DNA from: Bacteroidales bacterium
Lineage (GTDB): Bacteria > Bacteroidota > Bacteroidia > Bacteroidales > Tenuifilaceae
Length of the DNA stretch: 43,951 nt
Reading direction: 5' to 3'
Assembly (NCBI GenBank): GCA_013376985.1
Contig: JACABB010000007.1
Span: forward strand, 112,328-156,278
Part shown: positions 3,408-43,823 of the stretch, piece by piece
Layout of the letters: each line of letters starts with the position of its first letter
How positions within the stretch are numbered: the stretch's first letter is position 1
Notes under the pieces: generated by a model
Seen by the model: only the letters and a program-made list of their open reading frames with translations
What the model was told of the DNA's origin: nothing
The model's database searches: none
Program-made: the position numbers and the translations under genes

Positions 3408-4313
3408 ATGGTTAGTTTAATTCTGATACTTGTAGCAAGTCTATTTTTTACAGGGATAGTTATTCGAACAAAGAGTTTAGCCTCTGGACGAAAAGGACCG
3501 GGCATTTTCCAGCCAATGAAAGATATTTTCAGGTTGCTCAAAAAAGGATCGGTTTATAGTAGCACTACCAGCATTATATTCCAGATTGCACCTAGTTTTT
3601 ACATCGCTTCGGTACTAATGGCAATTCTAATAGTTCCACTTGGCGATTATCCAGGAGTAATATCATTTCAGGGAGATTTTATACTGTTTGCTTATTTACT
3701 AGCATTCGGAAAGTTCTTTATGATTATCTCGGCATTGGATACTGGTAGCAGCTTTGAGGGAATGGGTGCCAGCCGTGAATCGTTGTTCTCCATGCTTGTT
3801 GAACCGGCATTCTTTATTCTAATGGGCTCTTTTGCTTTGCTTACAGGTCATACATCTTTTCATGATATTTTCGCAACCTTACATTACGGTTCTAATATCT
3901 CGTACCTATTAGGCTTACTAGCAACCTTTGTGTTTATAATGATTGCAATGATTGAGAACAGCCGTATGCCTGTTGATGATCCTAAAACCCACCTTGAGCT
4001 TACCATGATTCATGAGGTAATGGTTCTCGATAACAGCGGCTTTGATCTAGGGTTAATACTTCATACCACAAATCTTAAGTTTGCGATGTATGGGGCGATT
4101 ATCTCTAACTTTTTTATAGGCGATCTTTCTTTGATATATACTATTCCAATATTTTTTGCTGTGCAAATTGGTTTTGCTATTGTAGCAGGATTGCTTGAAT
4201 CGTTTATGGCACGCTTTAGGATGAGCCATAACCCACAGTTTATCTTTATTTTAACATCGGTATCGCTACTAATATTCTTTGGCGTGCTGCTGCTATTGGA
4301 AAGATTTGTTTAA
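3408..4313 (+). CDS. hyfC: HyfC/NuoH-like membrane anchor subunit
   Basis: A 301-residue membrane protein of the NADHdh (NuoH/HyfC/HycD) family, which links the hydrophilic arm to the membrane arm. The diagnostic loops are present: FQPMKDIFRLLKK near the N-terminus, the acidic FEGMGASRESLFS loop, and DDPKTHLELTMIHEVM, whose charged residues contact the NuoB/NuoD-type subunits. MGASRE is characteristic of the hydrogenase branch rather than of NuoH. It starts one base after hyfB copy 2. It is separated from hyfE by 236 bp containing an inverted octamer array, unusual in an otherwise tightly packed operon. Confidence 0.92.
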   Translation: MVSLILILVASLFFTGIVIRTKSLASGRKGPGIFQPMKDIFRLLKKGSVYSSTTSIIFQIAPSFYIASVLMAILIVPLGDYPGVISFQGDFILFAYLLAFGKFFMIISALDTGSSFEGMGASRESLFSMLVEPAFFILMGSFALLTGHTSFHDIFATLHYGSNISYLLGLLATFVFIMIAMIENSRMPVDDPKTHLELTMIHEVMVLDNSGFDLGLILHTTNLKFAMYGAIISNFFIGDLSLIYTIPIFFAVQIGFAIVAGLLESFMARFRMSHNPQFIFILTSVSLLIFFGVLLLLERFV

Positions 4314-4380
4314 TGTGAGTTCAATGTAAGAAGTCACATTAATAATATAATAAACAATTATTTACAAATACAGTAATTAT

Positions 4381-4475
4381 GAATGGAATGGTGGAACAAT
4401 GGAATGATGGAAAACAAGAGGCTAGATTCTTGCTTAAATCTCCAGTATTCCATTATTCCAGTTTTCCATTGATTC
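4381..4475. repeat. Octamer-periodic inverted repeat between hyfC and hyfE
   Basis: The left arm (4381-4414) reads as 8-bp units ending in TGG (aatggtgg, aacaatgg, aatgatgg). The right arm (4442-4475) is the reverse complement of the same unit type (ccagtatt, ccattatt, ccagtttt, ccattgat). The centre holds a short extra stem, CAAGA/TTCTTG. It lies within a 236-bp gap that contains no credible gene. It belongs to the same class of 8-bp arrays seen elsewhere in the window. The function is unknown; a transcript would fold into a hairpin. Confidence 0.8.
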
Positions 4476-4549
4476 AAACAACTTAAATTGGTTGATATTA
4501 AGGTTAATACATTGTTTCTTAAATCGAACTGACTTCAAATTAGTGTAAT

Positions 4550-6620: not shown

Positions 6621-8123
6621 ATGGACTACATAGTATCAATAAATAATAATCAAAGCCTGCCGATAAAGGATATCCCAGAGCAAGCGTACCATACCTTCCT
6701 TGAAAACAACATTGGTATGTTAAAGGATAATGATAATAGGCATTGTGTTAATTATTTTGGACTCCAACAGGAAAGTAGTGTTAAGTTATTCTGCTGTATT
6801 GCTGATGATTCGATTCATCAAATTTACATATCATCCTGCGTGGTTAATAAAGGAACAACGCTAAACTCATTTGCAAAACACAATTTAAACTTCGAAAAGT
6901 TTGAGCGCGAAATCCACGAAAATTTTAATATTAAATATACCGACCACCCTTGGTTTAAACCTGTTAGATATTCAGAGAATAGGGTAAATAAAGCCGAAAC
7001 AATAGCCAACTACCCTTTCTATAGCTTTGATAGCGAGGAGTTACACGAGGTTGGTGTTGGACCAGTTCACGCAGGGATTATTGAGCCTGGTCACTTCCGA
7101 TTTATATGCAATGGCGAGCAGATAATGCATCTTGAGATTCAACTTGGTTATCAGCATCGGGGGATTGAGCAACTCTTCTTAAAAAAGAAAAGTTTATTAG
7201 AACGCACAATTCTTGCTGAGAGCATTGCTGGTGATACTACAGTTGGACATACAACCGCTTTTGTGAACCTTTGGGAGAATCTCTGTGGGTATCAACCTGA
7301 TTTAGGGTTACAATTCACAAGAACACTTGCCTTAGAACTGGAGCGAATGGCCATGCATACCGCTGATTTAAGCGCTATGTGTACCGATATCGCCTACCAA
7401 TTGGGTAGTTCAGTTTATGGAAGATTAAGAACACCTATTATAAACTATTTTCAGGAATGGTGTGGAAATAGATTGGCAAAGAGCCTTATAAAACCCGGGA
7501 CTACTAATTTTCCTTATACTAATGACTTAGCAAATCGTTTAAATCAGGTATTTGCAGCATACGAGCCAGATTTTATTGAGATGAGTACAAAACTCTTCAA
7601 ACTCCCAAGCGCTCTATCACGTTTCGAGAGAACTGGGGTTGTAACTTTAGATGAGGTAAAATCCATTGGAACAGTGGGAATGGCTGCACGTATGAGCGGT
7701 TTAAATAGAGATATCAGATTATCACACCCCCATGATTTGTATACAACTATCAATCATCAACCGATTATTAAGCGACATGGAGATGTTTATTCTCGCGCTC
7801 AAATCAGAAGGGATGAAGTTAAGCAATCCATGGGTTATATAAGAAGTATGATTGGAAATATCCCCGATTTCAAAAAGCATGATAACCCAGAATTTAAACC
7901 AATGCCCGATACATTCTCAATATCCTTAGTTGAAGGTTGGCGGGGCGAAATTTGCCATTGTGCTATTACAGACTCAAAGGGTGAATTGATTCTTTATAAA
8001 ATTAAAGATTCTTCGTTCCATAACTGGCTTGCTTTAGCGCAATCGGTTAGAAATAACGAAATCTCCGATTTTCCAATTTGCAATAAGAGTTTTAACCTCT
8101 CCTATTGCGGACACGATCTTTAG
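6621..8123 (+). CDS. hyfG: HyfG-like large subunit lacking NiFe ligands (Ehr-type)
   Basis: A 500-residue fusion of a NuoC-like N-terminus (about 1-130) and a NuoD/hydrogenase large-subunit domain (about 140-500). Family landmarks are GPVHAGIIEPGHFRF, LEIQLGYQHRGIE and LELERMAMHTADL. The first NiFe motif, CxxC followed by H, is replaced: the aligned region is ESIAGDTTVGH with A203 and T206 in place of cysteines and H210 retained. The C-terminal DPCxxC is replaced by SFNLSYCGHDL with one leftover cysteine, C496. A NiFe centre therefore cannot be built in the usual way. This is the hallmark of the energy-converting hydrogenase-related (Ehr) group, whose reaction is not established. It lies 2 bp after hyfF and is separated from hyfI by a 213-bp repeat region. 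Confidence 0.9.
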   Translation: MDYIVSINNNQSLPIKDIPEQAYHTFLENNIGMLKDNDNRHCVNYFGLQQESSVKLFCCIADDSIHQIYISSCVVNKGTTLNSFAKHNLNFEKFEREIHENFNIKYTDHPWFKPVRYSENRVNKAETIANYPFYSFDSEELHEVGVGPVHAGIIEPGHFRFICNGEQIMHLEIQLGYQHRGIEQLFLKKKSLLERTILAESIAGDTTVGHTTAFVNLWENLCGYQPDLGLQFTRTLALELERMAMHTADLSAMCTDIAYQLGSSVYGRLRTPIINYFQEWCGNRLAKSLIKPGTTNFPYTNDLANRLNQVFAAYEPDFIEMSTKLFKLPSALSRFERTGVVTLDEVKSIGTVGMAARMSGLNRDIRLSHPHDLYTTINHQPIIKRHGDVYSRAQIRRDEVKQSMGYIRSMIGNIPDFKKHDNPEFKPMPDTFSISLVEGWRGEICHCAITDSKGELILYKIKDSSFHNWLALAQSVRNNEISDFPICNKSFNLSYCGHDL

Positions 8124-8310
8124 ACAATTTGAAAATTTGAGAATGAAATAATTTGAGAATGTGGCAATTTGACAATGAGACAATTTGATAATTTGGTAAT
8201 TTGAAAATATGGCAATGGGAAAGTGTAAATTTATAAACAGAACTTACGTGTTACCAAATTTTCAAATTACCATATTATCAAATTACCAGATTTTCAAATT
8301 TTGTAATTAT
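8124..8310. repeat. Octamer array, 12 + 7 units, inverted, between hyfG and hyfI
   Basis: Immediately after the hyfG stop, 8124-8219 divides exactly into twelve 8-bp units in which AAT occupies positions 3-5 every time (acaatttg, aaaatttg, agaatgaa, ataatttg and so on; consensus nnAATnnG). After about 35 bp, 8255-8310 divides into seven units of the reverse-complement form (caaatttt, caaattac, catattat, caaattac and so on; ATT invariant). The two blocks form a long imperfect hairpin. No gene is present. This is the clearest member of the window-wide array family. Confidence 0.9.
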
Positions 8311-8336
8311 CAACAGTGTAAATTTAAACTCGGAAT

Positions 8337-24608: not shown

Positions 24609-24663
24609 TTGAATAATAGAATGTTGGAAGAGATCGCAACTTTTCCATTGCTTCATTATTCAA
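24609..24663. repeat. Octamer-periodic inverted repeat downstream of sucD
   Basis: The left arm (24609-24632) TTGAATAATAGAATGTTGGA is mirrored by the right arm (24640-24663), ending CTTCATTATTCAA. Both are read as 8-bp units (gaataata, gaatgttg, gaagagat). It lies 18 bp beyond the sucD stop and may act as its terminator, although no T-run follows on the minus strand. It belongs to the same family as 4381-4475. Confidence 0.75.
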
Positions 24664-27171: not shown

Positions 27172-27178
27172 AAAATAG

Positions 27179-27197
27179 AACCCGGGCAACCGGGTTT
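27179..27197 (+). terminator. Terminator after malic enzyme
   Basis: AACCCGG, loop gcaa, CCGGGTTTTT, starting 8 bp after the malic enzyme stop. It is a short GC-rich stem with a five-T tail. Confidence 0.8.
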
Positions 27198-27231
27198 TTG
27201 TATAAATCTTCGATTTGATTTCAATTAACAT

Positions 27232-28656
27232 CTAATTGATGTTTAGCTCTTCTTTTATCGATTTAATAATATCCGGTGCATTAAATGCCAAATCGCTAAG
27301 GAGTTCATTAATTTTAAGGGATTTATAGCGATGATTTATCAATGTTCGGGCTGAGCTGATAATGATATCCTTAAATTTTTCAAGAGAAATCTCACCCTCC
27401 ATATACTCAGAAATAGTTGTATACCATAGTATTACAGGTAGATAAATGGCTTTACCTGCATGTTCTTTTTCTTTATTTACCAGTTTATACCTTCGTGAGA
27501 GGCTTATAATTCTTGAATATTTCTCGTTTCGCAATAAAGCTAGTAAATATGCACTAAAGAATAGATGCCAACGATACTCAAAAATCTCCTTTTTGTACCC
27601 CTCAAAGAATGTTGTTGCATAGCTAACCGATTTTTCTAGCTGATTATTAGCTAAAAGCGTTCTGATATAGAACGATACAAATCCAATTTTGCAATAATAA
27701 CTGCTTGTATTTTTAAGTTCAGGAATTGAACTTGTCATTAAACCAAGTGCATCCTGATGTTTCCCGCATTTTAAAAGAACCGCACTATGGTTAACAAGGT
27801 AAAAGAGATAATCGTTATTCTTCTGTCTGATTGATAGATATCCAAACTTCTCGGCTAAATCGAGTTCGTTGAGCTTTGAGTGCATCATTGCTCTATTTGC
27901 ATAGTAGTTTGCTAGAACTCGTTTTGAGTAGAATATATTAGTTTTAAGAGCAATGTCAAGATTATCGTAGATTGAACGCAGTTTATCGAATTCGCGGTTA
28001 GTGTAGTAGAAAATGGTTAACCGAACAGCAGCCCGATAGCGTGTGTAACCATCGAGATTAGTATCAAAATAAATAGTTTTGAATAGTTCCTCAAATCGAT
28101 TAAATTCTTCGTCAGTGGATGCCAACTTACTTACAACTCGCTCAGCAGCACTGTTTAGATCGTTATTTAGTAGAATAGATTTTTCGAACGGTTCCTTATA
28201 CTTCTCAAGGTATGCTGATATTTGAGAATAGTATCTAATTCTATTCCTTACCATCAAGTAATCGCGGTAGTGTTGAAGAACTTGGTAGAATCGGATAAAG
28301 TAGTAAAAAGTAGGCCCTAAATGGTTTGTTTGATCTAGTAGATATTTTTCCTCCTCTGGAACGATAGAATCGTTCATTACATTTCTTTCAATAGAAATGA
28401 GCCAATCGTAAAATAGATCTACATCATGCTTATTAAGCACTTCAACAATCCATGTTTTTAGGTAGGAATATGTTCTTTTATTGATTTGTTGATTATAGGG
28501 AATAAGATTTAAAGGGTTCTTAGTGTTATAATTAACTAAATTAAGGATTGTAAGATTATCGGATTTTGAGAATTGTTGCTGCGATAATAAGAAATCCGAT
28601 TCATGTGGGTACAATGAATTAGCAAAATCAGTGAATGTATCTAATTTGTTACGCAT
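27232..28656 (-). CDS. Helical repeat (TPR-like) protein of unknown function
   Basis: A 474-residue soluble protein without signal peptide or membrane segment. It is almost entirely helical, and several stretches have TPR-like spacing of small and aromatic residues (for example around YANRAMMHSKLNELDLAEKF and LLKCGKHQDALGLM). The N-terminal 130 residues are rich in tyrosine and leucine with FYYFIRFYQVLQHYRDY. No enzyme motif is seen. It is the last gene of the long minus-strand series but is separated from the hydrolase by a terminator hairpin (28672-28698), so it may be an independent unit. Confidence 0.75.
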   Translation of the reverse strand: MRNKLDTFTDFANSLYPHESDFLLSQQQFSKSDNLTILNLVNYNTKNPLNLIPYNQQINKRTYSYLKTWIVEVLNKHDVDLFYDWLISIERNVMNDSIVPEEEKYLLDQTNHLGPTFYYFIRFYQVLQHYRDYLMVRNRIRYYSQISAYLEKYKEPFEKSILLNNDLNSAAERVVSKLASTDEEFNRFEELFKTIYFDTNLDGYTRYRAAVRLTIFYYTNREFDKLRSIYDNLDIALKTNIFYSKRVLANYYANRAMMHSKLNELDLAEKFGYLSIRQKNNDYLFYLVNHSAVLLKCGKHQDALGLMTSSIPELKNTSSYYCKIGFVSFYIRTLLANNQLEKSVSYATTFFEGYKKEIFEYRWHLFFSAYLLALLRNEKYSRIISLSRRYKLVNKEKEHAGKAIYLPVILWYTTISEYMEGEISLEKFKDIIISSARTLINHRYKSLKINELLSDLAFNAPDIIKSIKEELNIN

Positions 28657-28671
28657 TATTAAAGCTTTTTA

Positions 28672-28698
28672 TATAATAAAACCGGGCAAAACCCGGTT
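28672..28698 (-). terminator. Terminator after the alpha/beta hydrolase gene
   Basis: On the minus strand AACCGGG, loop ttttg, CCCGGTT followed by TTATTATAT. It lies 57 bp past the hydrolase stop. The T-run is interrupted, so efficiency is uncertain. Confidence 0.65.
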
Positions 28699-28754
28699 CT
28701 AATTTACAACATATACTCATTTATCAAAACAATAAAATAGTTCTTGCATAAGAA

Positions 28755-29720
28755 TTAGTGACTGCTATTTGATAAAAAACCCAACACCTCTTGATTAAAT
28801 ACCTCGGGTTTTTCAAACATCATAAAATGGCCACATTTTGGAACCATTACTAACTTGCTCCCTTTAATTTTTGATGCACCATATTTAGCAATATCAACGG
28901 TTTTACCGGGATTAAGGTATCGATTAGGAATAAGATTATCATTTGCGCCAAAGAGGATTAGGGTAGGTTGTGTAATTTGATCTAAACGATCTATCACTGG
29001 CTCATCAATCATACCATTTACCGACTGAACAACAGTATAACAATAAGCTTCAAAATCGGCAGCAGTGCGCATGCTAATCCTATCGTTGATCATGAATTCT
29101 GCATCTTTGGGAACTCTGTAGAAATTGGTTGCCAAATTATTTTGAATCGTTTCAACAGGAGTTTTTCGAACTCCTTCTGCTGTCATAACATCTCGAAACC
29201 ACTGCTTTTGACCTTCGTGGAATCGCTCAAATCCGGCAGGATCAACTAGTACAAGCGCTTTAACCATATCGGGATAAAGCAATGCAGTAGTAATTGATAT
29301 CTGGCCACCCATTGAATGTCCAGCAAGAACTACTTCACCAAGTTTCAGTTCAGTAACAAACTCTTTGATAATACTAGCATAGAAGGTCATCATTCCACTA
29401 TGTGGTTTCTTACTCGATTTACCGTATCCCGGAAGATCGATAGCAATACACCGAAAATTGCTCTTTAAACTTTTAGTATTTTTACTCCAAGCAGGAAGAT
29501 AACTACCCAATCCGTGGATAAATATTATGGTTTTGCTTCCCTCGCCCTCATCGGTATAAGCAATTTCGTAGCCACTTGTAGGAAGTAAAACCTTCTTTAC
29601 TGGACTTGAATAAACCATTTCGTCCATAGTGGCATATTTTGTCAATTTTTTATAGGGTGTACTGCAGTTATTCATAGCCAAGAGGATAACTACTAAACTA
29701 ATTATACTAATCTTTTTCAT
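28755..29720 (-). CDS. Exported alpha/beta-fold hydrolase (probable lipoprotein)
   Basis: A 321-residue alpha/beta hydrolase. The N-terminus MKKISIISLVVILLAMNNCS is a lipoprotein-type signal, although MNN before C19 is an atypical lipobox. The oxyanion motif is FIHGLGSY, the nucleophile S136 in AGHSMGGQ, an acidic residue in LFGANDNLIP and the catalytic H298 in KCGHFMMFEKPEVF, so the triad is complete. It is probably an esterase or lipase-like enzyme facing the periplasm or cell surface. It lies 24 bp after the outer-membrane barrel gene, suggesting co-transcription and a role in releasing the acid handled by the CoA genes upstream. Confidence 0.88.
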   Translation of the reverse strand: MKKISIISLVVILLAMNNCSTPYKKLTKYATMDEMVYSSPVKKVLLPTSGYEIAYTDEGEGSKTIIFIHGLGSYLPAWSKNTKSLKSNFRCIAIDLPGYGKSSKKPHSGMMTFYASIIKEFVTELKLGEVVLAGHSMGGQISITTALLYPDMVKALVLVDPAGFERFHEGQKQWFRDVMTAEGVRKTPVETIQNNLATNFYRVPKDAEFMINDRISMRTAADFEAYCYTVVQSVNGMIDEPVIDRLDQITQPTLILFGANDNLIPNRYLNPGKTVDIAKYGASKIKGSKLVMVPKCGHFMMFEKPEVFNQEVLGFLSNSSH

Positions 29721-29744
29721 CTCATTAATTTTTATAGTTAAACC

Positions 29745-31343
29745 CTAAAACATAAGCCATTTAAAAACAAGGAATGCAGTCCAAGGATTATATGGTCGTT
29801 TGGTAAAACTTCCATTGATATCGCTTCCATGTGAACTCTCGTTGCTATCGTAGAAGTTGCCAAGCGATAGGTAGGCTGCGTGCAATTCCAAACTCATAAA
29901 TGGGCCAAATTGATAGCCCAATGAACCATTTACCTCAGTTCCCATGTAGTAACCGCCACCTTTGGGAGCAACATTACTCATTGCAAATGCGCCACCAATC
30001 TTTGCATTCAGTTTATTAGGTATAATTCCATATGAAATGTTAGTTGTAGCTGCTGTTACCCCATACCCCATATTCGATAAATCACCAATTGCAGGTGTAA
30101 AACGGTTGACAACATTGGGTTGACCGAACAGCAAATACGCACCAGAGCTTACAAAAATAGCACCTGGGGATCCCCAAGTATTGCCTGTAACTACACCAGA
30201 GTATTTACCGTTTTTTAACCCGTCACTATCGCCGGATGAATAGATTAAGTCTAAACTCACAGCATCGCTAGTAGTTTGACCGTATCGATATGATGTACGT
30301 AGATTTGCTGCAAAACCAAATATGTCAACAGCTCTGGACCACTTACTTTTCGAAACTAGTTGGTTAGTCAGAGTATCAACATTTCCAACGTTTAAGTTGA
30401 AAAAGCCAGTTATCATCCAAGGATCTAAGGCGTGTTCGGTGTTGCGACCGAAAAAAGTTCCTAGCCATGCCACGTTTGACTTATATGGTACATTGCCTAA
30501 ATGGAAGAAATAAGCACCATTATACTGAGTTAGTAGGCTGTTCATGCCCTGACTAAGTATTGAAACCCCACCAGCACCAGATGCTCTATCGTTGATAAAG
30601 TAAGCAGAAGCACCCCATTTCCATGCACGTGAAATATCTTTTTCGCCGGTTAGCTCGTAAAGGGTAACATCATCATCCTTCTCAATACTGTTCTCATATA
30701 GCTTGTAATAACCCATTTTTACTCGAGAAAAATCCCAATCCTTTCTTACTGATATTCCAACAGCATCTGAACCCCAGTATGCAAGGCGATAACCAGTTGT
30801 GGTCATCTTATCAAATACTGTTTTATATGGATTATAAGGTGTATCAAAGAGTCGTTGCAATCCAAGGTTAATATACCATCCTTTAAAAGGATTTAGTTCA
30901 AGTTCAACATTCTGTGTTTGAATATCAACCTGATCTGCGCTGAAGGCAGAACCTGTATTACCGCCAACACCATAAGCTGCATCTCCCCATGTCCAATCTA
31001 TCTCAAATGAAGTCCTCAAAATAGCCTTACCGTTGAATAGTTTTGGTTGATAAATTAGATAAGGCAATAGCCGTTGTTCAGCATATTTGCTTACTAGTGA
31101 ATTTGAGGTCACGGTTGAATTTTGACCAAAGAGCCGCCCAATTACCTGCCCTTTCATAAAATCACTTTCGGCATAAACGTTAGTTCTTACCGCTTGATTT
31201 ATGTAAAAAGCAAGAAACTGAAACTCTTTGTTGGCCTTACGAGGGACTTCATTCTTTAGGTAAGGCATTGTGATAACATTCTGCGAATGCAGCGTGCTTA
31301 GGCAGATGGTTAGAATTACCAAAATGGTTATCAGTTTTTTCAC
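29745..31343 (-). CDS. Outer-membrane beta-barrel porin-like protein
   Basis: A 532-residue protein starting at GTG (31341-31343). A signal peptide (KKLITILVILTICLSTLHSQ) is followed by a long series of amphipathic aromatic strands with glycine-rich turns (WGDAAYGVGGNTGSAF, NLGLQRLFDTPYNPYK, KIGGAFAMSN, MSLELHAAYLSLGNFY) and a terminal WLMF, consistent with a large monomeric barrel of the alginate-export or porin kind. It is likely a substrate-specific outer-membrane channel. The downstream hydrolase gene is 24 bp away. A terminator of the preceding lipoprotein gene lies 41 bp upstream of its start, so it may have its own promoter. Confidence 0.8.
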   Translation of the reverse strand: MKKLITILVILTICLSTLHSQNVITMPYLKNEVPRKANKEFQFLAFYINQAVRTNVYAESDFMKGQVIGRLFGQNSTVTSNSLVSKYAEQRLLPYLIYQPKLFNGKAILRTSFEIDWTWGDAAYGVGGNTGSAFSADQVDIQTQNVELELNPFKGWYINLGLQRLFDTPYNPYKTVFDKMTTTGYRLAYWGSDAVGISVRKDWDFSRVKMGYYKLYENSIEKDDDVTLYELTGEKDISRAWKWGASAYFINDRASGAGGVSILSQGMNSLLTQYNGAYFFHLGNVPYKSNVAWLGTFFGRNTEHALDPWMITGFFNLNVGNVDTLTNQLVSKSKWSRAVDIFGFAANLRTSYRYGQTTSDAVSLDLIYSSGDSDGLKNGKYSGVVTGNTWGSPGAIFVSSGAYLLFGQPNVVNRFTPAIGDLSNMGYGVTAATTNISYGIIPNKLNAKIGGAFAMSNVAPKGGGYYMGTEVNGSLGYQFGPFMSLELHAAYLSLGNFYDSNESSHGSDINGSFTKRPYNPWTAFLVFKWLMF

Positions 31344-31383
31344 GACACGATAATTTTAAATTGAATTTACAAAGGTGACTAAC

Positions 31384-31429
31384 AAAAAAGCTGCTACAAA
31401 ACTAAAGTTAATTTTTGTAACAGCTTTTT
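31384..31429 (-). terminator. Terminator after the lipocalin-like lipoprotein gene
   Basis: AAAAAGCTG-c-TACAAAA pairs with TTTTTGTA-a-CAGCTTTTT across a 12-base loop. The A-run on the plus strand becomes a T-run for minus-strand transcripts. It lies between the lipoprotein and porin genes. Confidence 0.75.
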
Positions 31430-31446
31430 ATGTAAATGCCTATAGA

Positions 31447-31953
31447 TTAAAGATCTGTTCTTTTATATTTCTGAATGTAGTAAGCCAATGCAACGTTATT
31501 GTACTTTGTACTTCCAAAGCCACCTTCAACAGTTGGAGCTGAAAAACCAGTAATTACAGGTTGTACCTGAATTACTTCGTATTTCATTGAGAAAGGAGTT
31601 GTAGTTGCATCAATCTCAAAAATACCAGTACTTGTAAGTGTAGTAGGTGTTGATTGGTTTACTGTAATCGCCCAAATTGTACCAGTGGTTGGTTTTACTT
31701 GAGAAAATGTTCCAGTCATGGTAGTTAGTGAGCCAGTTTTATATGATTTAACCGTATAAGTAAAATCGGATTTAAACTCGGCATAAATTGAATCGCAATA
31801 GTTAGCTAAACCTGGAGCAATATTGGTTCTTGATGAGTACCATTTACCTACAATACCATCCTTTGAAGGATTGTAAGTTGTATCGTCATCACTTTTTTTG
31901 CAACCAGCAATAGCAAGTGCAAGAAGTAAAAATAAAGCTAGATTTCTTTTCAT
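31447..31953 (-). CDS. Putative lipoprotein with lipocalin-like fold
   Basis: A protein of 168 residues from MKRNLALFLLL; the open frame extends 28 codons further upstream, but that part lacks a signal and the lipobox AIAGC follows properly from 31953. The mature N-terminus is acidic (KKSDDDTT). The motif DGIVGKWYSSR is lipocalin-like, followed by regular beta strands (YAEFKSDFTYTVKSY, TMTGTFSQV), as in lipocalin-like domain proteins of Bacteroidota. The function is unknown. Its upstream region (32045-32127) resembles the region upstream of the thiolase gene. Confidence 0.78.
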   Translation of the reverse strand: MKRNLALFLLLALAIAGCKKSDDDTTYNPSKDGIVGKWYSSRTNIAPGLANYCDSIYAEFKSDFTYTVKSYKTGSLTTMTGTFSQVKPTTGTIWAITVNQSTPTTLTSTGIFEIDATTTPFSMKYEVIQVQPVITGFSAPTVEGGFGSTKYNNVALAYYIQKYKRTDL

Positions 31954-32044
31954 AGTTGTAAGTGTTAAGTTATTTAAAATTGAGTTTTCTAATCTTTTCA
32001 GCAAGTAACAAAACTGTTGTAACGAGTTCAACCTCATTAATAAA

Positions 32045-32127
32045 TACTATGGGTTGACTTAAGTTATTTTTTCTCATCACAGCAATTTATTTATCTATAT
32101 ATCAATTTATTAACTATATTCATTGAA
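32045..32127. repeat. Upstream element copy A (shared with 39486-39567)
   Basis: Contains GGGTTGAC (32051-32058) followed by TAA, ATTTTT and, 56 bp on, TTTATTAAC and GAAG. The same words in the same order, with the spacing differing by one base, occur at 39486-39567. It lies 92-174 bp upstream of the lipoprotein start (minus strand). It could be a shared promoter/operator region or a small duplicated element. Confidence 0.55.
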
Positions 32128-32149
32128 GGTGCGACATTGGATAATCTTA

Positions 32150-33166
32150 CTATCCCCACCTTACAACATTTGCACCCCAAGCATACCCAATTCCAGCAGC
32201 AATCATAGAGATAATTGTTCCCTTCTGGATTTTGTTTTGCTGTAATGCCAGATGCAGCGATAAAATTTGGTCAATCTGCCCCATGTGTCCATAGTTCTCA
32301 AGGTAAATGCTTTGTTCGTGGTTTAACCCCAAACTTTCAAGCATTGAGTTGAACATTGAACGCTTAAAATGTAGCGATGCCAAATAACCGATCTTATCTA
32401 AATCTACATTCGATTTCTCGAAAGCCTTGTGTATGCAATGCATCCAGTTACTCATTGATACTTCGTTTAGACGATCTTTCATATGTTTCTCGTCGAAAAC
32501 ACGCAATGATTTTAGGGCTGTATCAGCATTATCCTTTGTAATTGGTTTGGAAATGCCACCATACTCAACACCTGCATCACGAGCCATTGTTCCATCGGTC
32601 ATTATATGAGTGCCAAGAAGCGAGTTCCGTCCAAAGTTCTTTTTCATAATCAACGCACCTGCACCGGCTGAAAGGTTGAACATGAATGAAATTGAACTAT
32701 CCGTATAATCAATAAAATCACCATTGCGATAACCGCCAACAATCATCACCGTGTTTATATCATGATCGGCAATCATCATATCCTTTGCAATTTTCATAGC
32801 CGCAACGGCAGTTCCGCAACGTTGTTGAACATCAATAGCCCAAGCGTTGGTTGCTCCAATTTTTTCTTGAATATAGATTCCTGAAGTTGTTAGTGGATAT
32901 TCCTTCCACTCCTCTCCTATACAAATCAATAAATCAATCTCTTTGGGATCGATACTTGTATTTTTCAAGGCATCAAGACCAGCTTTAACGCCCATTTCCT
33001 GAGTACCATCGTCAATACCCGGTATTGGTTTCTCAATAATACCGAGCTTTTCGATAACCGCCTGCTCCGACCAAACTCCCTTTGTCTCCTCGGAAATTTG
33101 CTTAGCGGTCATCCTTGTTTTTGGGATATATATACCTGTACCTACTATTCCTACTTGTGTATTCAT
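32150..33166 (-). CDS. KASIII-like thiolase-fold protein b
   Basis: A 338-residue member of the 3-oxoacyl-ACP synthase III / HMG-CoA synthase-like superfamily. The N-terminal GIVGTGIYIPKTRMT and the nucleophile C117 in DVQQRCGTAVAA are clear. Aligned with FabH (Cys-His-Asn), the His position is occupied by L265 with H266 one residue later (SLHFKRSM), and the Asn position by H294 (NYGHMGQ). The fold and end motif (AAGIGYAWGANVVRWG) are intact. It probably catalyses Claisen-type condensation, acyl transfer or cleavage on a CoA thioester rather than fatty-acid initiation. It lies 32 bp downstream of its paralogue, implying a heteromeric pair. Confidence 0.85.
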   Translation of the reverse strand: MNTQVGIVGTGIYIPKTRMTAKQISEETKGVWSEQAVIEKLGIIEKPIPGIDDGTQEMGVKAGLDALKNTSIDPKEIDLLICIGEEWKEYPLTTSGIYIQEKIGATNAWAIDVQQRCGTAVAAMKIAKDMMIADHDINTVMIVGGYRNGDFIDYTDSSISFMFNLSAGAGALIMKKNFGRNSLLGTHIMTDGTMARDAGVEYGGISKPITKDNADTALKSLRVFDEKHMKDRLNEVSMSNWMHCIHKAFEKSNVDLDKIGYLASLHFKRSMFNSMLESLGLNHEQSIYLENYGHMGQIDQILSLHLALQQNKIQKGTIISMIAAGIGYAWGANVVRWG

Positions 33167-33198
33167 TGTTTGTTTATAAAGAGTGAAATATAAAGGTG

Positions 33199-34206
33199 CT
33201 AGTAAACAAATAGATTACTTCCAACCGCTAAACCTGCACCTGATGCCATGAACAGAACTAAATCGCCTCGTTTTATCTTCTTTTCTTGTACAGCATGGTG
33301 AAAAGCAATTGGAATACAACCAGAACCAGTGTATCCATAGCGATCCATTACAAAAGATGTCTTTTCAATTGGCTGTTTTAGTTCATCCATTACCTTAATA
33401 ATTACCGATTTGTTGATTTGAGTGAAGATAAAGTGGTCGACTTCGTTGATGTTTTTACCTGCTTTATTAAGTAATTTTTCAATCACCATAGGCCAAAGAC
33501 GAACATTACGATCACCCGGTAGTGGTTGAAGACTGAGCAACCCATGCTGTTTGCGGTCAATTAAATCGGGGGTAATAGGGTTACGTGAACCGCCAGCATA
33601 GATTCCAATGAAATTCCATTGGGTACCATCTGTAAGCAGCTGACCATCAACATAACCTGTTGCCTCACTAAACCTTTTCTCAATAACTACCGCTCCTGCA
33701 CCATCAGCAAATATTGAGTAACCAAAAGTATCATCGGGTCTAATAAATGCTGGCATATTGTAAACCCCAATAACCACAGCATATTTTATGCTACTATCAG
33801 TAGCCATTATGCGTACCGCATTATCGAAAGCAATTGCAAAACTTGCACACGATGCACTAACATCAAAGGTAGATGCCCATGTTTCACCGCCCTGAATGCG
33901 TCCTTGCACAAGGATAGATGTTGCAGGTGTAATAAACTCAGGAGTATCGGTACCTACAATGAACAGACCAATATCATTTGCTGAAATACCAGCGTTTTCG
34001 ATGGCATTCTGGGCGGCCTTAGTTGCAAAATCTGCTGTTGTTTCGTCTATTCCACGGAGTTTAGCGTTATGTCTTTTGTATATACCAAGCTTCTCCTCGG
34101 TTTTCAAATGATCAAATTCAATTGATGCTAACGCTTTTAGTTCAGTATTATCGATTGCTTCGCCCGGCACATACATTCCGGTTCCGATTATTTTTACTGG
34201 GATCAT
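33199..34206 (-). CDS. KASIII-like thiolase-fold protein a
   Basis: A protein of 335 residues from the ATG at 34206; the frame continues seven codons to a TTG, but the ATG gives the usual MIPVKIIGTGMYVPGE start. The nucleophile C120 (DVSASCASFAIA) is conserved. The FabH catalytic histidine of PHQAN is T262 (IFTQINKS; Q263 and N265 kept), and the asparagine of HGNT is Y292 (DRYGYTGSG). Two of three triad residues are therefore replaced while the fold motifs, including the C-terminal ASGAGLAVGSNLF, remain. It is encoded between the CoA-transferase gene and its paralogue. Confidence 0.87.
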   Translation of the reverse strand: MIPVKIIGTGMYVPGEAIDNTELKALASIEFDHLKTEEKLGIYKRHNAKLRGIDETTADFATKAAQNAIENAGISANDIGLFIVGTDTPEFITPATSILVQGRIQGGETWASTFDVSASCASFAIAFDNAVRIMATDSSIKYAVVIGVYNMPAFIRPDDTFGYSIFADGAGAVVIEKRFSEATGYVDGQLLTDGTQWNFIGIYAGGSRNPITPDLIDRKQHGLLSLQPLPGDRNVRLWPMVIEKLLNKAGKNINEVDHFIFTQINKSVIIKVMDELKQPIEKTSFVMDRYGYTGSGCIPIAFHHAVQEKKIKRGDLVLFMASGAGLAVGSNLFVY

Positions 34207-34269
34207 TGGTTTAACTCTTATGTACAATTTGAATTACTTTATTGCTCTTATGATTTACTACGACTTAAT

Positions 34270-34376
34270 AAATTGACAATTTGATAATTTGAAAAATTGC
34301 TAATGGTTTTATTTTGACATTAATTTTAAATAATTCATTTTCAAATCTTCAAATTGCACTAATTACCTCATTGTCA
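34270..34376. repeat. Octamer array between KASIII-like and CoA-transferase genes
   Basis: The left block reads acaatttg, ataatttg, aaaaattg, ctaatggt. The right block (about 34340-34376) has the opposite orientation (tcttcaaa, ttgcacta, attacctc, attgtcat). The unit is the same as at 8124-8310, with more drift. The 186-bp gap otherwise contains nothing recognisable. Confidence 0.75.
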
Positions 34377-34392
34377 TCTTTGTCGCATTAGT

Positions 34393-35703
34393 TTATATGT
34401 ACCCCATCCTCTCTGCCTGAGCCGTTAATTCATCTCTGAATTTTGGATGTGCAATACCAATCAAAGCCTTAGTGCGCTCCCTAACAGTTAACCCTGTCAA
34501 TCGGGCACTTCCATGCTCTGTAACCACCCAATCGGTATGACTTCGATGAAGGGTAACCGCTGATCCTTCGGCTAGAGTTGGTACTATGGTTGAAACTGTT
34601 CCATTACGAGCGGTTGAGCGACATGCAATAATCGATTTACCTAAACCATCAAATCCTTCAATTGCACCCTCGGCAGTATCTGTTTGACCTCCGGTTCCAG
34701 AATATTGGTTAATTCCAATCGATTCGCTTGCTACCTGACCAGTAAAATCAACAGTTATACAGGTATTTATCGAGACCATTTTGGAGTTTTGGCGGATAAA
34801 AGCAGGATCGTTTACAATTTTTCCACGCAGGAATTCAACTGCGGGATTATTATCGAGCCATTTGTACATCTTCTCCGAACCCATTGCAAAGGTGCAAACA
34901 AACTTATCTTTATATAAACTTTTCTTTTTATTTGTTACAACGCCCATTTCGTAGAGTTCCATCATTGAATCCACCATCATCTCGGTATGAACGCCTAAAT
35001 CCTTTTTATCCGTTAATGCAAGTGCAACCGCATTAGGAATTTCACCAATACCAAGCTGAATGGTTGATCCATCATCAACTAGTTTTGCGATGTTTGCACC
35101 AATTTTCTTTGCATCATCATCAAGAACTGGCGAAGGAAGTGTTGGCGGAACCTGCGAATACTCAGCAAAATATGTTACATCGTTAATATGCAAATGTGTA
35201 TCGCCAAAAGTGCGTGGAAGATGATCATTAACCTCAAGCACAACGATATCAGCATTTTCAATGATATCCTTCTCGTAGGTTATACCTAATGATAGCGAAA
35301 CAAAGCCTTTTTCATCGGGAGGAGTGCAAGTTCCAACAAACATGTGAGGTTTGCGAACTTTCAACCTATCGGTTGCCGCTCTATGCAGCATGTTTGGTAC
35401 ATAAGTTACAGTCCCTGCCCCTTCCTTAATTGCTTGTCGTGATCCAGGTGCATGAAACCAACTGCAAAGTTCAAAATGACCTTTCATCTCAGGTTTCATA
35501 TAAAAATCGTAGGGTTTAAGGGTTAAAACGGAGAATATCTTCACATCTCTCACCCTATCTTTTGCCAAATGAAACTTCGACATACAACCCTGTGGCTCCG
35601 ATGCACATTGAGCAACAATGATATCGGAATCGCTTTTAATTAGATCGGCAACCTGTTCAATGGTAATCAGTTTGCTTTTATAGATTGAACTGTAGTCTTT
35701 CAT
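34393..35703 (-). CDS. Acetyl-CoA hydrolase/transferase family CoA-transferase
   Basis: A protein of 436 residues from the ATG at 35703; the frame extends six codons to a TTG at 35721, directly abutting the symporter stop. It is of the AbfT/Cat1/But type. Visible motifs are VGTCTPPDEKGFVSLS, QLGIGEIPNAVALAL, HTEMMVDS with the probable catalytic glutamate E241, GSEKMYKWLDNNP and GTGGQTDTAEGA. Such enzymes move CoA between acetate and 4-hydroxybutyrate, butyrate or similar short acids. Placed with thiolase, an SDR and a Na+ symporter, it would activate an imported acid or release one for export. The exact acid is not determinable here. Confidence 0.9.
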   Translation of the reverse strand: MKDYSSIYKSKLITIEQVADLIKSDSDIIVAQCASEPQGCMSKFHLAKDRVRDVKIFSVLTLKPYDFYMKPEMKGHFELCSWFHAPGSRQAIKEGAGTVTYVPNMLHRAATDRLKVRKPHMFVGTCTPPDEKGFVSLSLGITYEKDIIENADIVVLEVNDHLPRTFGDTHLHINDVTYFAEYSQVPPTLPSPVLDDDAKKIGANIAKLVDDGSTIQLGIGEIPNAVALALTDKKDLGVHTEMMVDSMMELYEMGVVTNKKKSLYKDKFVCTFAMGSEKMYKWLDNNPAVEFLRGKIVNDPAFIRQNSKMVSINTCITVDFTGQVASESIGINQYSGTGGQTDTAEGAIEGFDGLGKSIIACRSTARNGTVSTIVPTLAEGSAVTLHRSHTDWVVTEHGSARLTGLTVRERTKALIGIAHPKFRDELTAQAERMGYI

Positions 35704-35721
35704 TGAGCCTATAGGTTTCAA

Positions 35722-37272
35722 TTATGTTAAACTCACTTTTTTCTTCGACATCAAATGAACTGAAATACCAACAATAAACGAGAATATTATAGCTGTTGAT
35801 GCTGCAATTGCTGGATTACGAACTGTTCCTTCAAGATAACGGTTGATAAAACCAAAATCTGCAATATGATTATTTACAAGATAAGGAAATCCGTAGTAAA
35901 CTAGGAAGTAAACAACCAACGCTGTGATTGAACCCGCTAGCGATGACTTTAATTTTGAATCCTTTACAAAGATTCCAAAAACTATTGGTATAAATGTAAC
36001 AGAAAAGAATGCATATACGCCGTTTTGTGCAAAAATTGCAACGCTAAGGTTTGGCGATAGAATCTGATTCCTAGCAAGAATAAACGAAATAATTCCCATT
36101 ACAATAATGGTTACCCTATTAATCAATACGTATGATTTATCGCCATTTATCTTTGATCCAAATAGTGGTTTTGCAATATCCTCGGTGAAAGTGGTTGATA
36201 CGCTTTGAATTAACCCTTCGAGTGTAGATAGGCCTGCACTCAAAAGCCCCATAATTACAAGTATTCCAACCGAAACAGCCAACCAACCGCTAGAAAACAC
36301 CTTAACTACGAATGCGGGTATCATACCATCAACTCCCAGTGGTTTGCCGTTCGATGTCATATCGGGGAATGATAGACGTGCCCAAAGACCTGCAATAACA
36401 ACTAAATAGAACAAACCTTGAACAATTACAGATGTTACTAGGTATCGGTTAACGTCACTCTCCTTCTTAAGCATTAACGATTTGGTCATGATATGGGGTT
36501 GGCAAACTACCGCAGCCCCAACAATTAGCTGCACAAATATTATCTCGTAGAAATCACGAAAAAGGCTGCTTCCTGGGTTTGTAGGTTTTACTAAGGCAGG
36601 ATCAATTGCAGCAAGTTTTGAGAAGAAAGCACCAATACCATCTTTTAGATGCTCATATCCAGCAGTTATTAGTATTACAGCAACAACAAGCATAATACCT
36701 GCTTGAATTGTATTAGTGTAAACCATTGAATTTGCTCCACCAAACATCATATAGATGAAAACAAACACAACCATTATAGCCAGCGTGTAAATGGGGTCGG
36801 TATTTAATGCCTGTGATAAAACTTTGGCTAATGCAACAAGAATCAACACAATAAAGGTTATCAGAAGTACCGAAAGGATTGCAATAAACAACGAGTAACC
36901 AGTACTATTGTATCGCTTGCCTATCCAACTTGCCAGCGAAACAGCACTAACCGATGTACCATACTTCCTAAAGCTTTTTGTGAGTACAACCAATGATACT
37001 AATGATGCAATTGGGAAAAATACCCCAAAGGACAAAAACCCACTTATTCCGTACACTGCAATTAACCCGGGATTAATAACAAAGGTTGCAGCGCTGGTCA
37101 TTGCAGCAGCAAGCGATAACCCCACAAATACTGGCGAAAAGGTTACACTTCCAACAGCATAATCCTTCATGCTTTTGATTTTCCTTGCCCCCTTTGCCAC
37201 GAGGTAGATAATTGCCGCAGAGTACAGCAAAATCAGTATCCATGTACCAATTATTTGTTGTGTTGTTGCCAT
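35722..37272 (-). CDS. Sodium:solute symporter (SSS family)
   Basis: A 516-residue protein with about 13 transmembrane helices. The start ATTQQIIGTWILILLYSAA, the YAVGSVTFSPVFVGLSLAAA segment and MTSAATFVINPGLIAVYG match the SSS family (PF00474), which uses Na+ gradients to import monocarboxylates, proline or sugars. The LSAGLSTLEGLIQSVSTTFT segment carries the TM8 Na+-site region. It is closest in feel to monocarboxylate carriers. It lies between the SDR and the CoA-transferase, with the CoA-transferase frame abutting its stop, so the imported (or exported) acid is probably the CoA-transferase substrate. Confidence 0.92.
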   Translation of the reverse strand: MATTQQIIGTWILILLYSAAIIYLVAKGARKIKSMKDYAVGSVTFSPVFVGLSLAAAMTSAATFVINPGLIAVYGISGFLSFGVFFPIASLVSLVVLTKSFRKYGTSVSAVSLASWIGKRYNSTGYSLFIAILSVLLITFIVLILVALAKVLSQALNTDPIYTLAIMVVFVFIYMMFGGANSMVYTNTIQAGIMLVVAVILITAGYEHLKDGIGAFFSKLAAIDPALVKPTNPGSSLFRDFYEIIFVQLIVGAAVVCQPHIMTKSLMLKKESDVNRYLVTSVIVQGLFYLVVIAGLWARLSFPDMTSNGKPLGVDGMIPAFVVKVFSSGWLAVSVGILVIMGLLSAGLSTLEGLIQSVSTTFTEDIAKPLFGSKINGDKSYVLINRVTIIVMGIISFILARNQILSPNLSVAIFAQNGVYAFFSVTFIPIVFGIFVKDSKLKSSLAGSITALVVYFLVYYGFPYLVNNHIADFGFINRYLEGTVRNPAIAASTAIIFSFIVGISVHLMSKKKVSLT

Positions 37273-37317
37273 CCGTTCAAAGTATTAGTTTGGTTTAATG
37301 AGTTTTTGTGTGGTTTT

Positions 37318-37404
37318 AAGTATTTGAGTATTTCGAGAGCCTAAAGTACTTAGAGTGATAAATCACTCTAGGCACTTTAAGTACTCAAGGCATTTTAGAT
37401 ACTT
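37318..37404. repeat. Long inverted repeat between SDR and symporter genes
   Basis: A perfect core AGAGTGAT-aa-ATCACTCT is flanked on both sides by imperfect complementary arms reaching AAGTATTTGAG on the left and TTTTAGATACTT on the right, a hairpin with arms of about 42 nt. Octamer-like words occur (agtatttg, agtatttc) but the period is less strict than in the AAT-type arrays. It lies directly after the SDR stop within a same-strand gene series, so it may terminate or attenuate between SDR and symporter. Confidence 0.8.
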
Positions 37405-37405
37405 C

Positions 37406-38149
37406 TTAAAGAGTTATCCCTCCATCCACGCTCAACGTAGTGCCATTAATATAGGCAGCTTCATCGCTTGCTAGGAATAGGTACGCCGATGCAATCTCCT
37501 CTGGTAGACCTAATCTGCCAACAGGAACCTTCTCTTCCATTGATTTTAGAACATTCTCAGGCATTTTCTTCACCATCTCGGTAGCAATAAAACCAGGAGC
37601 AACTGCGTTTACGGTAATCCCTTTGCGACCAAGTTCTCTAGCTAAAGTCTTAGTCAAACCAATTAACCCAGCCTTTGTAGCAACATAGTTGGATTGACCA
37701 AAATTTCCATAAAGTGCTACAACAGAAGAGGTATTGATGATTCTACCATACCCTTTATCAACCATATATGAGCTAACGCATTTTGTGCAATAGAAAACCC
37801 CAGATAAATTTACATCAATTACCTGCTGCCATTGCTCAACGGTCATCTTTTTTAGCGTAGAATCGCGAGTAATACCTGCATTATTTACAAGTATATCAAT
37901 TTTACTGTATTTATCGAATGCCTGTTTCGAAGCAGCTTCAACCTCAGCATAGTTTGCTGTGTTCACCTTTACGAATTCTGCTTCACCGCCTGTTGACTTA
38001 ATTTGGGCAACGGTTTCGTTCCCTTTTTCGGGATTCATATCCCAAATAACAACCTTTGCACCCTCTTGGGCAAATTTTAATGCACCTGCACGGCCAATAC
38101 CATCAGCACCGCCTGTTATAATTGCTACTTTATTTTCGAGTCTTTTCAT
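37406..38149 (-). CDS. Acetoacetyl-CoA reductase / FabG-like SDR
   Basis: A 247-residue classical SDR of the FabG/PhaB kind. It has TGGADGIG (12-19), NNAG (89-92), N114, S142, Y155 and K159, and ends with the expected AYINGTTLSVDGGITL. D37 after the second strand (VVIWDMNPEKG) could favour NADH. Next to a thiolase gene it most likely interconverts acetoacetyl-CoA and (R)-3-hydroxybutyryl-CoA. A general FabG role in fatty-acid synthesis is less likely given the CoA-transferase and transporter around it. There are 90 bp between it and the thiolase gene. Confidence 0.9.
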   Translation of the reverse strand: MKRLENKVAIITGGADGIGRAGALKFAQEGAKVVIWDMNPEKGNETVAQIKSTGGEAEFVKVNTANYAEVEAASKQAFDKYSKIDILVNNAGITRDSTLKKMTVEQWQQVIDVNLSGVFYCTKCVSSYMVDKGYGRIINTSSVVALYGNFGQSNYVATKAGLIGLTKTLARELGRKGITVNAVAPGFIATEMVKKMPENVLKSMEEKVPVGRLGLPEEIASAYLFLASDEAAYINGTTLSVDGGITL

Positions 38150-39593: not shown

Positions 39594-39720
39594 GCAATTT
39601 GATAATTTGATAATTTGACAATGAGATAATTTGACAATGAGACAATAGTACAATACTTAATAACTAATAACCTAATAACCAATAACTCATTAACCTAACA
39701 ACCTAATAACTAATAACCCA
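39594..39720. repeat. Octamer array (AAT type) plus TAATAACC array
   Basis: 39594-39657 divides into eight 8-bp units with AAT at positions 3-5 in all (gcaatttg, ataatttg, ataatttg, acaatgag, ataatttg, acaatgag, acaatagt, acaatact). It is followed by a second array of taataacc/aataacta words with 7-8 bp spacing to 39720. Unlike at 8124, no inverted partner block is present. It sits in the divergent thiolase/mnmE region. Confidence 0.85.
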
Positions 39721-43740: not shown

Positions 43741-43808
43741 GGAGTAATGGAGGATTGGAAGGTTGGAATGATGGAATAATGGAAAGTTGGAGTGTTGGAA
43801 GATTGGGA
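43741..43808. repeat. Octamer array (TGG type) upstream of pnuC
   Basis: After gagtaatgg the sequence divides into aggattgg, aaggttgg, aatgatgg, aataatgg, aaagttgg, agtgttgg, aagattgg, each ending in TGG: seven exact 8-bp units. No inverted block was found before the window ends. The same unit type forms the hairpins at 4381-4475 and 24609-24663. The 331-bp region 43621-43951 contains no gene. Confidence 0.85.
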
Positions 43809-43823
43809 GTCTCAAAACCAACC

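What the first reader, a model, noticed from the sequence alone, without database searches (positions are those of the whole stretch)
8124..8310. Inverted arrays with an exact 8-bp period: a possible new intergenic element family
Twelve consecutive octamers share AAT at positions 3-5, followed by seven octamers in reverse-complement form, giving a long hairpin. The same 8-bp period recurs at 4381-4475, 24609-24663, 34270-34376, 39594-39720 and 43741-43808, with different unit sequences (nnAATnnG or nnnnnTGG). Eight bases matches neither a helical turn nor a codon multiple, and the arrays lie in non-coding gaps. The constant period with a changing unit suggests a copying mechanism that counts length, or a protein that binds 8-bp modules.
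Basis: seen in the sequence. Interest (0 to 1): 0.75.

Follow-up and report, generated by a model that had tools for sequence, protein, structure and literature searches.

The report
Shape-shifting tandem-repeat hairpins between genes
Short, sloppy 8-letter (and 7-letter) DNA repeats sit, often as fold-back pairs, in gaps between bacterial genes, and at the same gap in related species the hairpin can be built from a quite different repeat word, much like a known but poorly understood repeat class of cyanobacteria.

Summary
In detail: twelve AAT-phased octamers and seven reverse-complement octamers lie at 8124-8313, and the window's intergenic lag-8 identity has z=7.4 (0 of 300 shuffles). It is not an 8-bp counter: in 1.19 Mb of this genome period 7 is as common (14 vs 15 segments), and orthologous gaps can hold 7-mers or 8-mers.

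The arrays belong to a dispersed Bacteroidota repeat class. About half of the seeded loci show an inverted pair, nearly always AAT arm first (38:1 after collapsing orthologues). The 8124 gap carries AATTTGAn units in two sister species, TGGAATAn units in three relatives, and 10-19 bp without array in ten others. In another genus all 29 readable atpA-atpG gaps fold strongly, using seven repeat words and one unrelated palindrome. A second gap is empty in 8 of 29 and the 8124 fold is weak in the sister, so most copies look tolerated. The 4381 array is different: the interior of an IS982-type MITE.

Closest known: cyanobacterial STRR hairpins. New variant of a known kind; function is inferred.

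The parts
8124..8219 (+). 5' arm: 12 octamers nnAATnnn (G at position 8 in most); AAT in 12 of 12
   Evidence: lag-8 score 36 and lag-16 score 41
8220..8250 (+). loop region; ACAGAACTTACGTG shared with the sister genome G025
8251..8313 (+). 3' arm: 7 reverse-complement octamers (from 8254); the sister has about 4 fewer units here (by eye)
6621..8123 (+). upstream gene, Complex1_49kDa (PF00346); the array starts directly after its stop codon
8337..9083 (+). downstream gene, Oxidored_q6 (PF01058); same direction, so the array is probably intra-operonic (inferred)
4312..4536 (.). MITE (TIR consensus AACGTSAGTTCGATNTAAGAAA) holding the 4381-4475 TGGAAnnA / TTCCAnnA arms; not present at this place in sister G025
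24609..24663 (.). weak inverted repeat GAATGTTGGAAG ... CTTTTCCATTGCTTC; period 8 not significant
34252..34378 (.). AATTTGAn arm followed by CAAATT-type arm
   Evidence: (C67:146579-146705)
39596..39710 (+). AATTTGAn array followed by TAATAACC array (7/8 mixed); in sister G025 a segment of about 12.5 kb that includes this array is missing
43741..43809 (+). single-arm GGAnnnnT octamer array

Best explanation
The 8124-8313 feature is a member of a dispersed class of degenerate short-tandem-repeat hairpins of Bacteroidota. SHOWN: arrays of period 8 (also 7) sit in intergenic gaps, in many cases right after a stop codon or right before the next start; about half of the seeded octamer loci have a detectable reverse-complement arm, and then nearly always the G-containing arm comes first; arrays differ by whole units between sisters; the same gap can carry arrays of different unit sequence in related species, or none. 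INFERRED: arrays grow and shrink by replication slippage of one unit; multi-unit blocks are copied between places in a genome (weak support from shared 3-unit orders), so each lineage carries favoured words; insertions survive only where they do no harm, that is in gaps; transcribed inside an operon a pair forms an RNA hairpin between two reading frames. Most copies are tolerated. At some gaps (atpA-atpG in one genus) the hairpin seems to be kept, presumably to set stability or translation of one cistron relative to the next. The 4381 array is a separate case, the inside of an IS982-type MITE whose arms use TGGAAnnA units.
For: Period spectrum: intergenic segments of score >=14 in 1.186 Mb number 14 at lag 7 and 15 at lag 8 (13 and 9 outside the window), against 1, 0, 1, 0, 1, 1 at lags 4, 5, 6, 9, 10, 11. 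The 8124 gap in 16 inspected loci: arrays in 5 close relatives (2 AATTTGAn, 3 TGGAATAn); 10-19 bp without array in 10 others; one locus (L063, another stretch of G025) gave no hit. Sister comparison at 15 placed sites: absent, retained and replaced arrays. Phylum sample: (AATNNGRN)x4 in 31 of 395 genomes, 274 matches against 59 for the reversed pattern (sums by hand). Arm order 55:1 by locus, 38:1 after collapsing orthologues. 29 of 29 readable atpA-atpG gaps fold with z from -4.3 to -8.6 while using seven repeat words and one palindrome. 3-unit orders shared between non-orthologous loci: 12 vs 5.1, 3 of 500 shuffles.
Against: The hairpin at 8124 is strong here (z -6.0) but not in the sister (z -0.9), G026 (-1.2) or G011 (-2.3), so RNA folding is not preserved at this very locus. 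Four other window gaps with listed arrays do not fold clearly beyond shuffles (z -0.4 to -1.8). scoA-scoB-like gaps are empty in 8 of 29 species, and only 7 of the 21 non-empty ones have z<-3. Covariation in 13 atp orthologues is modest: 5 pairs with double changes (16 of 500 shuffles); percent paired (101 of 500), pair types (429 of 500) and covariation score (186 of 500) are not unusual. 53 of 109 seeded loci had no partner arm within 200 bp. G-first order is also the majority in other stems of this genome (160:62). Sharing of 2-unit and 4-unit orders is not significant (215 and 59 of 500). G430 carries two different words in nearby gaps.
Confidence: 0.5

Rival explanations
1. Selected RNA elements: array pairs are maintained as intercistronic mRNA hairpins that set stability or translation of neighbouring cistrons; unit turnover is free as long as pairing is kept.
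For: 29 of 29 readable atpA-atpG gaps in one genus keep a strong hairpin despite different words; 75 of 105 classified arrays lie between co-directional genes, and in 32 of these 75 both ends are within 15 nt of the neighbouring ORFs; some double changes.
Against: Hairpin weak at 8124 in the sister and two relatives; scoA-scoB-like gap empty in 8 of 29; atpA-atpG is only 5-10 bp in 4 of 30 genomes across the class, including this one; about half of the seeded loci show no second arm.
Confidence: 0.22
2. All arrays are remnants of MITE ends: transposon terminal repeats built of sub-repeats, spread by transposases.
For: The 4381 array lies inside a TIR element; 13 of 19 paired family copies have an exact 4- or 5-bp target duplication and an IS982 transposase copy with similar ends exists. 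Fixed arm order is what TIRs would give.
Against: The 8124 array and the other-genus arrays showed no common ends or target duplications where compared by eye. This copy at 4312-4536 itself has no clean duplication.
Confidence: 0.13
3. Pure local slippage: arrays arise in place because the polymerase favours 7-8 nt slips (footprint idea of Mrazek 2007 as told in PMC4679880, which speaks of 7 nt); inverted arms arise by template switching.
For: Among lags 4-12 only 7 and 8 peak in intergenic DNA; whole-unit differences between sisters.
Against: The same words recur at unrelated loci and the AAT word in distant families; genome-wide abundance of the AAT word goes with its presence at atpA-atpG (median 8 vs 0, not corrected for phylogeny); fixed arm order.
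Confidence: 0.12
4. Binding arrays for a protein that reads 8-bp DNA modules (iteron-like).
For: AAT in 12 of 12 units here and in 13 of 13 units of the sister's left arm.
Against: Units differ wholesale at orthologous gaps, which a sequence-specific binder would not be expected to tolerate; arrays lie in tandem, convergent and divergent gaps.
Confidence: 0.05

Closest known systems
STRR (short tandemly repeated repetitive) sequences of filamentous cyanobacteria; passages in PMC2670836 and PMC2408588, whose reference lists name Mazel 1990 and Jackman & Mulligan 1995 (titles only seen)
   Same: Tandem short units in intergenic and intercistronic gaps that can fold to hairpins (hupS-hupL), suggested roles in transcript stability or translational coupling; the 1995 title speaks of 'highly variable but structured intergenic regions' in close relatives.
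   Different: Units there are usually 7 bp; here 8 and 7 side by side. Other phylum. Replacement of one unit word by another at an orthologous gap, and the fixed arm order, were not in the passages I saw.
TAACTGA heptamer direct repeats (MacGregor 2015, PMC4679880; abstract, passages and section 12 read)
   Same: Intergenic 7-mers, some in Bacteroidetes, long arrays, 'larger assemblages of heptamer repeats', relatives without the repeats at the same place.
   Different: One exact word, direct repeats (one indirect), in the main species mostly just before start codons; no octamers or word-changing hairpins in what I read.
BrickBuilt minisatellite-in-MITE of Porphyromonas gingivalis (PMC4596501; abstract and outline seen)
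   Same: Bacteroidota, tandem repeat inside a MITE, intergenic; parallel to the 4381 element.
   Different: 23-nt unit; an inverted pair of arrays is not mentioned in the abstract.
IS982-type MITEs (class recalled)
   Same: 4312-4536: TIRs, related copies with short target duplications, IS982 transposase copy with similar ends in the same genome.
   Different: 8-bp tandem arms as its interior; does not apply to 8124-8313.
REP / REPIN elements (PMC12306157 passages; PMC3116915 search listing only)
   Same: Dispersed intergenic palindromes that can act as RNA hairpins.
   Different: No tandem 7/8-bp arms mentioned; five of six Y1-transposase loci here show no array within 1.5 kb.

Membership tests
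STRR (cyanobacterial) | tandem units of 7 bp | tested here: not met
   8124 array has period 8; 7-bp arrays exist elsewhere in the genome
STRR (cyanobacterial) | intergenic or intercistronic, able to form a hairpin | tested here: met
   (z -5.97) for this copy; weaker in relatives
STRR (cyanobacterial) | host is a cyanobacterium | tested here: not met
   closest named records are Bacteroidales / Bacteroidota MAGs
IS982-type MITE, 8124-8313 | terminal inverted repeats and target duplication around the array | tested here: not met
   none seen when the gap was compared with G025 and relatives by eye
IS982-type MITE, 4312-4536 | terminal inverted repeats, site without it in a relative, related IS in the genome | tested here: met
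   TIRs and gap without it in G025; IS982 copy:
IS982-type MITE, 4312-4536 | target duplication | tested here: inconclusive
   13 of 19 paired family copies have an exact 4- or 5-bp duplication, this copy (L091) does not
REP / RAYT system | array near a Y1 transposase gene | tested here: inconclusive
   array within 1.5 kb at 1 of 6 loci (L388)
Intrinsic terminator | placed at transcript ends, not inside operons | tested here: inconclusive
   75 of 105 classified arrays lie between co-directional genes, 18 between divergent genes; no transcript data
Rfam families | match at gathering score | tested here: not met
   0 matches in the window

The most novel reading that the evidence does not exclude
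Hairpins at fixed intercistronic gaps are kept while their repeat word is exchanged wholesale (8-mer for 7-mer and back) from a genome-wide, lineage-specific vocabulary. That would mean a trans-acting copying process that rewrites short tandem arrays across a genome, a prokaryotic form of concerted evolution of micro-arrays, coupled to selection for a hairpin but not for its sequence.
Probability: 0.2. Interest if true: 0.85.

Novelty: new variant of a known kind. Interest (0 to 1): 0.6.

Why it matters
If right, many intergenic gaps of Bacteroidota hold RNA-forming repeats that sequence-conservation methods cannot see, because place and fold can persist while the word changes. The atpA-atpG gap gives a ready natural experiment, 29 species with seven repeat words and one palindrome, for asking whether an intercistronic hairpin is selected for shape alone. 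It also extends a long-known, unexplained cyanobacterial phenomenon (STRR) to another phylum and adds the 7-or-8 rule as a clue to how such arrays are made.

Tried and rejected
An exact own-genome pattern gave one hit, too strict to be useful. Rfam gathering scan of the window: nothing. tRNA scan of the window: nothing. A Y1-transposase (REP) link: weak. Promoter function (Bacteroidota -7 motif TAnnTTTG, recalled) was considered by eye only: the AATTTG units here are not preceded by TA at the needed place. A Rho-binding idea for the C-containing arm was considered only in thought. Six literature searches aimed at such arrays in Bacteroidota or Flavobacterium listed no paper whose title or abstract describes octamer arrays; the library lacks most subscription journals. 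In the passages I saw of the flavobacterial transcriptome paper PMC9723704 they are not mentioned. Vocabulary tests with GAAGnnn and AGTGnnn: the GAAGnnn control is useless because the pattern reads the same backwards; the AGTGnnn pattern did not single out its genomes, while its control (which reads GTGAnnn) did, for two of four. The arm-order claim was cut back after one search showed a general G-first bias in this genome's stems.

Full report
1. Observation. From 8124 twelve octamers carry AAT at positions 3-5 and from 8254 seven carry ATT in the complementary phase. Lag-8 identity in the window's gaps is 0.350 against 0.3015 (sd 0.0066) in 300 dinucleotide shuffles, none as high. Lag 16 is also never reached; lags 6, 9 and 10 are reached by 237, 229 and 274 of 300, and lag 7 by 17 of 300. 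Segments of score 14 or more were found at lag 8 in six stretches. The site 24609-24663 is not among them (lag-8 score 5). The array at 39594 mixes periods 7 and 8.

2. Period. I read 1.186 Mb of the 5.26-Mb genome (and the window), not a random sample. Intergenic segments of score 14 or more number 14 at lag 7 and 15 at lag 8, against 1, 0, 1, 0, 1, 1 at lags 4, 5, 6, 9, 10, 11 (ORFs called crudely by length). Outside the window it is 13 and 9, so the window is locally rich in period 8. Higher lags also have counts (for instance 11 at lag 16, 10 at lag 24, 8 at lag 21), partly multiples of 8 and partly other repeats. Period 7 is as typical as 8, so 'counting eight' falls. In one gap 7-mer and 8-mer stretches follow each other (C15:13966-14077).

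3. The 4381 array is a MITE interior. The sister genome G025 (about 90% nucleotide identity in the long collinear blocks) lacks about 220 bp there, and carries a related element after the gene that ends at window 9083. The terminal repeat AGTTCGATNTAAGAAAC, up to two mismatches, has 87 places in the genome against 9 for the reversed control. Among the 30 TIR loci the tool fetched, 19 distinct short elements of 125-266 bp were paired; 13 have an exact 4- or 5-bp duplication (an earlier rule, at least 4 of 5 aligned bases, counted 6), and 17 of 19 hold both TGGA[AG] and [CT]TCCA words. The window copy has no clean duplication. A 1031-bp copy with similar ends (C15:18896-19926) encodes a 303-aa IS982 transposase (NF033520, 260.7 bits, cut-off 130).

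4. The 8124 array is not a MITE by these tests. It starts after the stop of a Complex1_49kDa gene and ends before an Oxidored_q6 gene in the same direction. Across 16 inspected loci (the printed strings include 15 bases of the neighbouring codons) the gap holds AATTTGAn arrays in G000 and G025, TGGAATAn arrays in G024, G026 and G011, and 10-19 bp without any array in ten others; one locus (L063) gave no hit because it is another stretch of G025. G024, G026 and G011 lie on contigs of the same length as the named MAG records L030, L021 and L022. Between G000 and G025 the gap differs by 24 bp, three units; by eye the sister's left arm has one unit more (13, all with AAT) and its right arm about four fewer. 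The RNA fold is strong here (-52.8 kcal/mol, z -5.97) and in G024 (z -4.6) but not in G025 (-0.9), G026 (-1.2) or G011 (-2.3). So the architecture recurs, but a good hairpin is not preserved at this locus.

5. Sister turnover. For 23 merged 7/8-period sites of score 12 or more on C67, C12, C4 and C1, 15 could be placed in the G025 stretches I held: some are retained nearly unchanged (C12:99469, C12:116848), four are absent (C67:108337, C67:116768, C12:32482, C12:38714), and at C67:87699 G025 has a GAAGnnn heptamer array instead. Eight had no syntenic place.

6. Spread. The pattern (AATNNGRN)x4 occurs in 31 of 395 genomes drawn from the phylum, with 274 matches against 59 (in 17 genomes) for the reversed pattern (sums by hand; overlapping matches in one array count several times). 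In one large genus, g18 (unnamed; by recall its proteins look like Flavobacterium, not verified), 58 of 121 genomes have it.

7. Arm order and place. I read 110 loci seeded by that pattern (30 given by the tool, 80 chosen by me from the listed places); 109 gave a seed array, 126 arrays in all with both strands counted. 53 arrays had no partner within 200 bp, 72 had the reverse-complement arm after and 1 before. Per locus 55 after, 1 before, 53 none; after collapsing orthologues 38:1. Shuffled flanks gave a partner in 5 of 252. Of 105 classified loci 75 lie between co-directional genes, 12 convergent and 18 divergent, plus one inside an ORF and 7 entries at edges; other gaps of 50 bp or more in the same loci were 27, 16 and 9. 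Of the 75, 32 have both ends within 15 nt of the neighbouring ORFs and 67 at least one. In a scan of this genome not seeded by a word, stems with period 7 or 8 were 15 G-first to 1, but other stems are also mostly G-first (160:62, 37 equal), so part of the polarity is general.

8. Same gap, different word. AtpG was searched in 61 g18 genomes; 59 matched and 30 loci, the best matches, were returned; 29 atpA-atpG gaps could be read (L289 failed). All 29 fold better than shuffles (z -4.3 to -8.6, median -6.1); the paired 5' bases have more G than C in 27, fewer in 1, equal in 1. By my reading the words are: AATTAGAn 8-mer in 13, ATCAATGTG-type 8-mer in 2, AGTGAAA-type 7-mer in 4, GAAGTTA 7-mer in 2, GTTGGTT 7-mer in 2, AAGTATT 7-mer in 1, AAAGTCn mixed 7/8 in 3, and an unrelated CCTCCCC palindrome in 2. 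In 30 other genomes of the class (28 genera) the gap is only 5-10 bp in 4 (including this genome) and 55 bp or more in 26, several with other repeat hairpins (judged by eye; one start codon uncertain).

9. Tests of the strong reading. In 13 AATTAGAn orthologues 92.5% of cells pair, but shuffles of the 3' letters give 91.8% (101 of 500 as high); 5 pairs have double changes (16 of 500), and the covariation score is not unusual (186 of 500). A second gap (a CoA-transferase subunit pair by recall) in 30 loci, the best of 60 genomes with a match: 29 readable, 8 empty (2-11 bp), 21 filled; 12 hold AAT octamers, 4 a CAGTGTT-type heptamer, the rest other sequence; 7 of 21 have z<-3. So occupancy is optional there.

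10. Vocabulary by genome. Genomes with the AAT word at atpA-atpG have more AAT arrays genome-wide (median 8 vs 0, 13 vs 16 genomes, Mann-Whitney p 1.2e-5; G463 left out because its gap was unread; relatedness not corrected; G426 is an exception with 9). The two genomes with GAAGTTA at atp have 41 and 70 GAAGnnn matches, the highest of the 29, though some genomes outside the 29 have as many or more (G425 80, G433 54). GTGAnnn (the control) is 121 and 225 in two AGTGAAA genomes, the highest of the 61, but the other two of that type have only 2 and 1. In G430 two gaps about 3 kb apart carry different words. Three-unit orders are shared between non-orthologous loci more than in unit shuffles (12 vs 5.1, 3 of 500); two-unit and four-unit orders are not significant.

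11. Reading. The simplest account is an STRR-like class: slippage-prone 7/8-bp arrays, often in inverted pairs, spread within genomes, tolerated in gaps, sometimes kept. Papers seen: PMC2670836 and PMC2408588 (passages), PMC4679880 (abstract, passages, section 12), PMC4060949, PMC7593598, PMC12306157 and PMC9723704 (passages), PMC4596501 (abstract, outline). In those texts I saw heptamer hairpins in cyanobacteria and heptamer arrays in a few Bacteroidetes, not octamer arrays or word replacement at orthologous gaps. Function remains inferred.

Noticed in passing
L014 18896-19926 (C15), L078-L106: An IS982 element and a family of short derivatives with similar ends, including seven copies of exactly 149 bp on C1, C10 and C50.
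   Followed up: partly
window 27174-39734: About 12.5 kb here is missing from the sister G025; the collinear block resumes at 39734, 14-24 bp after the 39594 repeat array.
   Followed up: no
L002 5787-6014, L011 19395-19587, L006 14310-14439: Long arrays with a 21-bp period; the first two share a CTTTGCAGACCATCAAAAC-type word on opposite strands, the third has another word.
   Followed up: no
window 39861-39875, 43824-43838 and 43911-43925; also gaps on C12 and C15: A small dispersed palindrome ATCGCA-n-TGCGAT; the last two lie beside the 43741 array, the first lies inside the gene at 39771-41177.
   Followed up: no
L080, L088, L090, L099: In some MITE copies part of the TGGAA arm is replaced by a block like GGAGCGAAGCGGAACTCGACGAAGTC, as if another repeat had nested in it.
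   Followed up: no
L303, L304 atpA-atpG gap: Two species have an unrelated strong CCTCCCC palindrome in place of a tandem-repeat hairpin, and another genus (L341) has a similar one.
   Followed up: no
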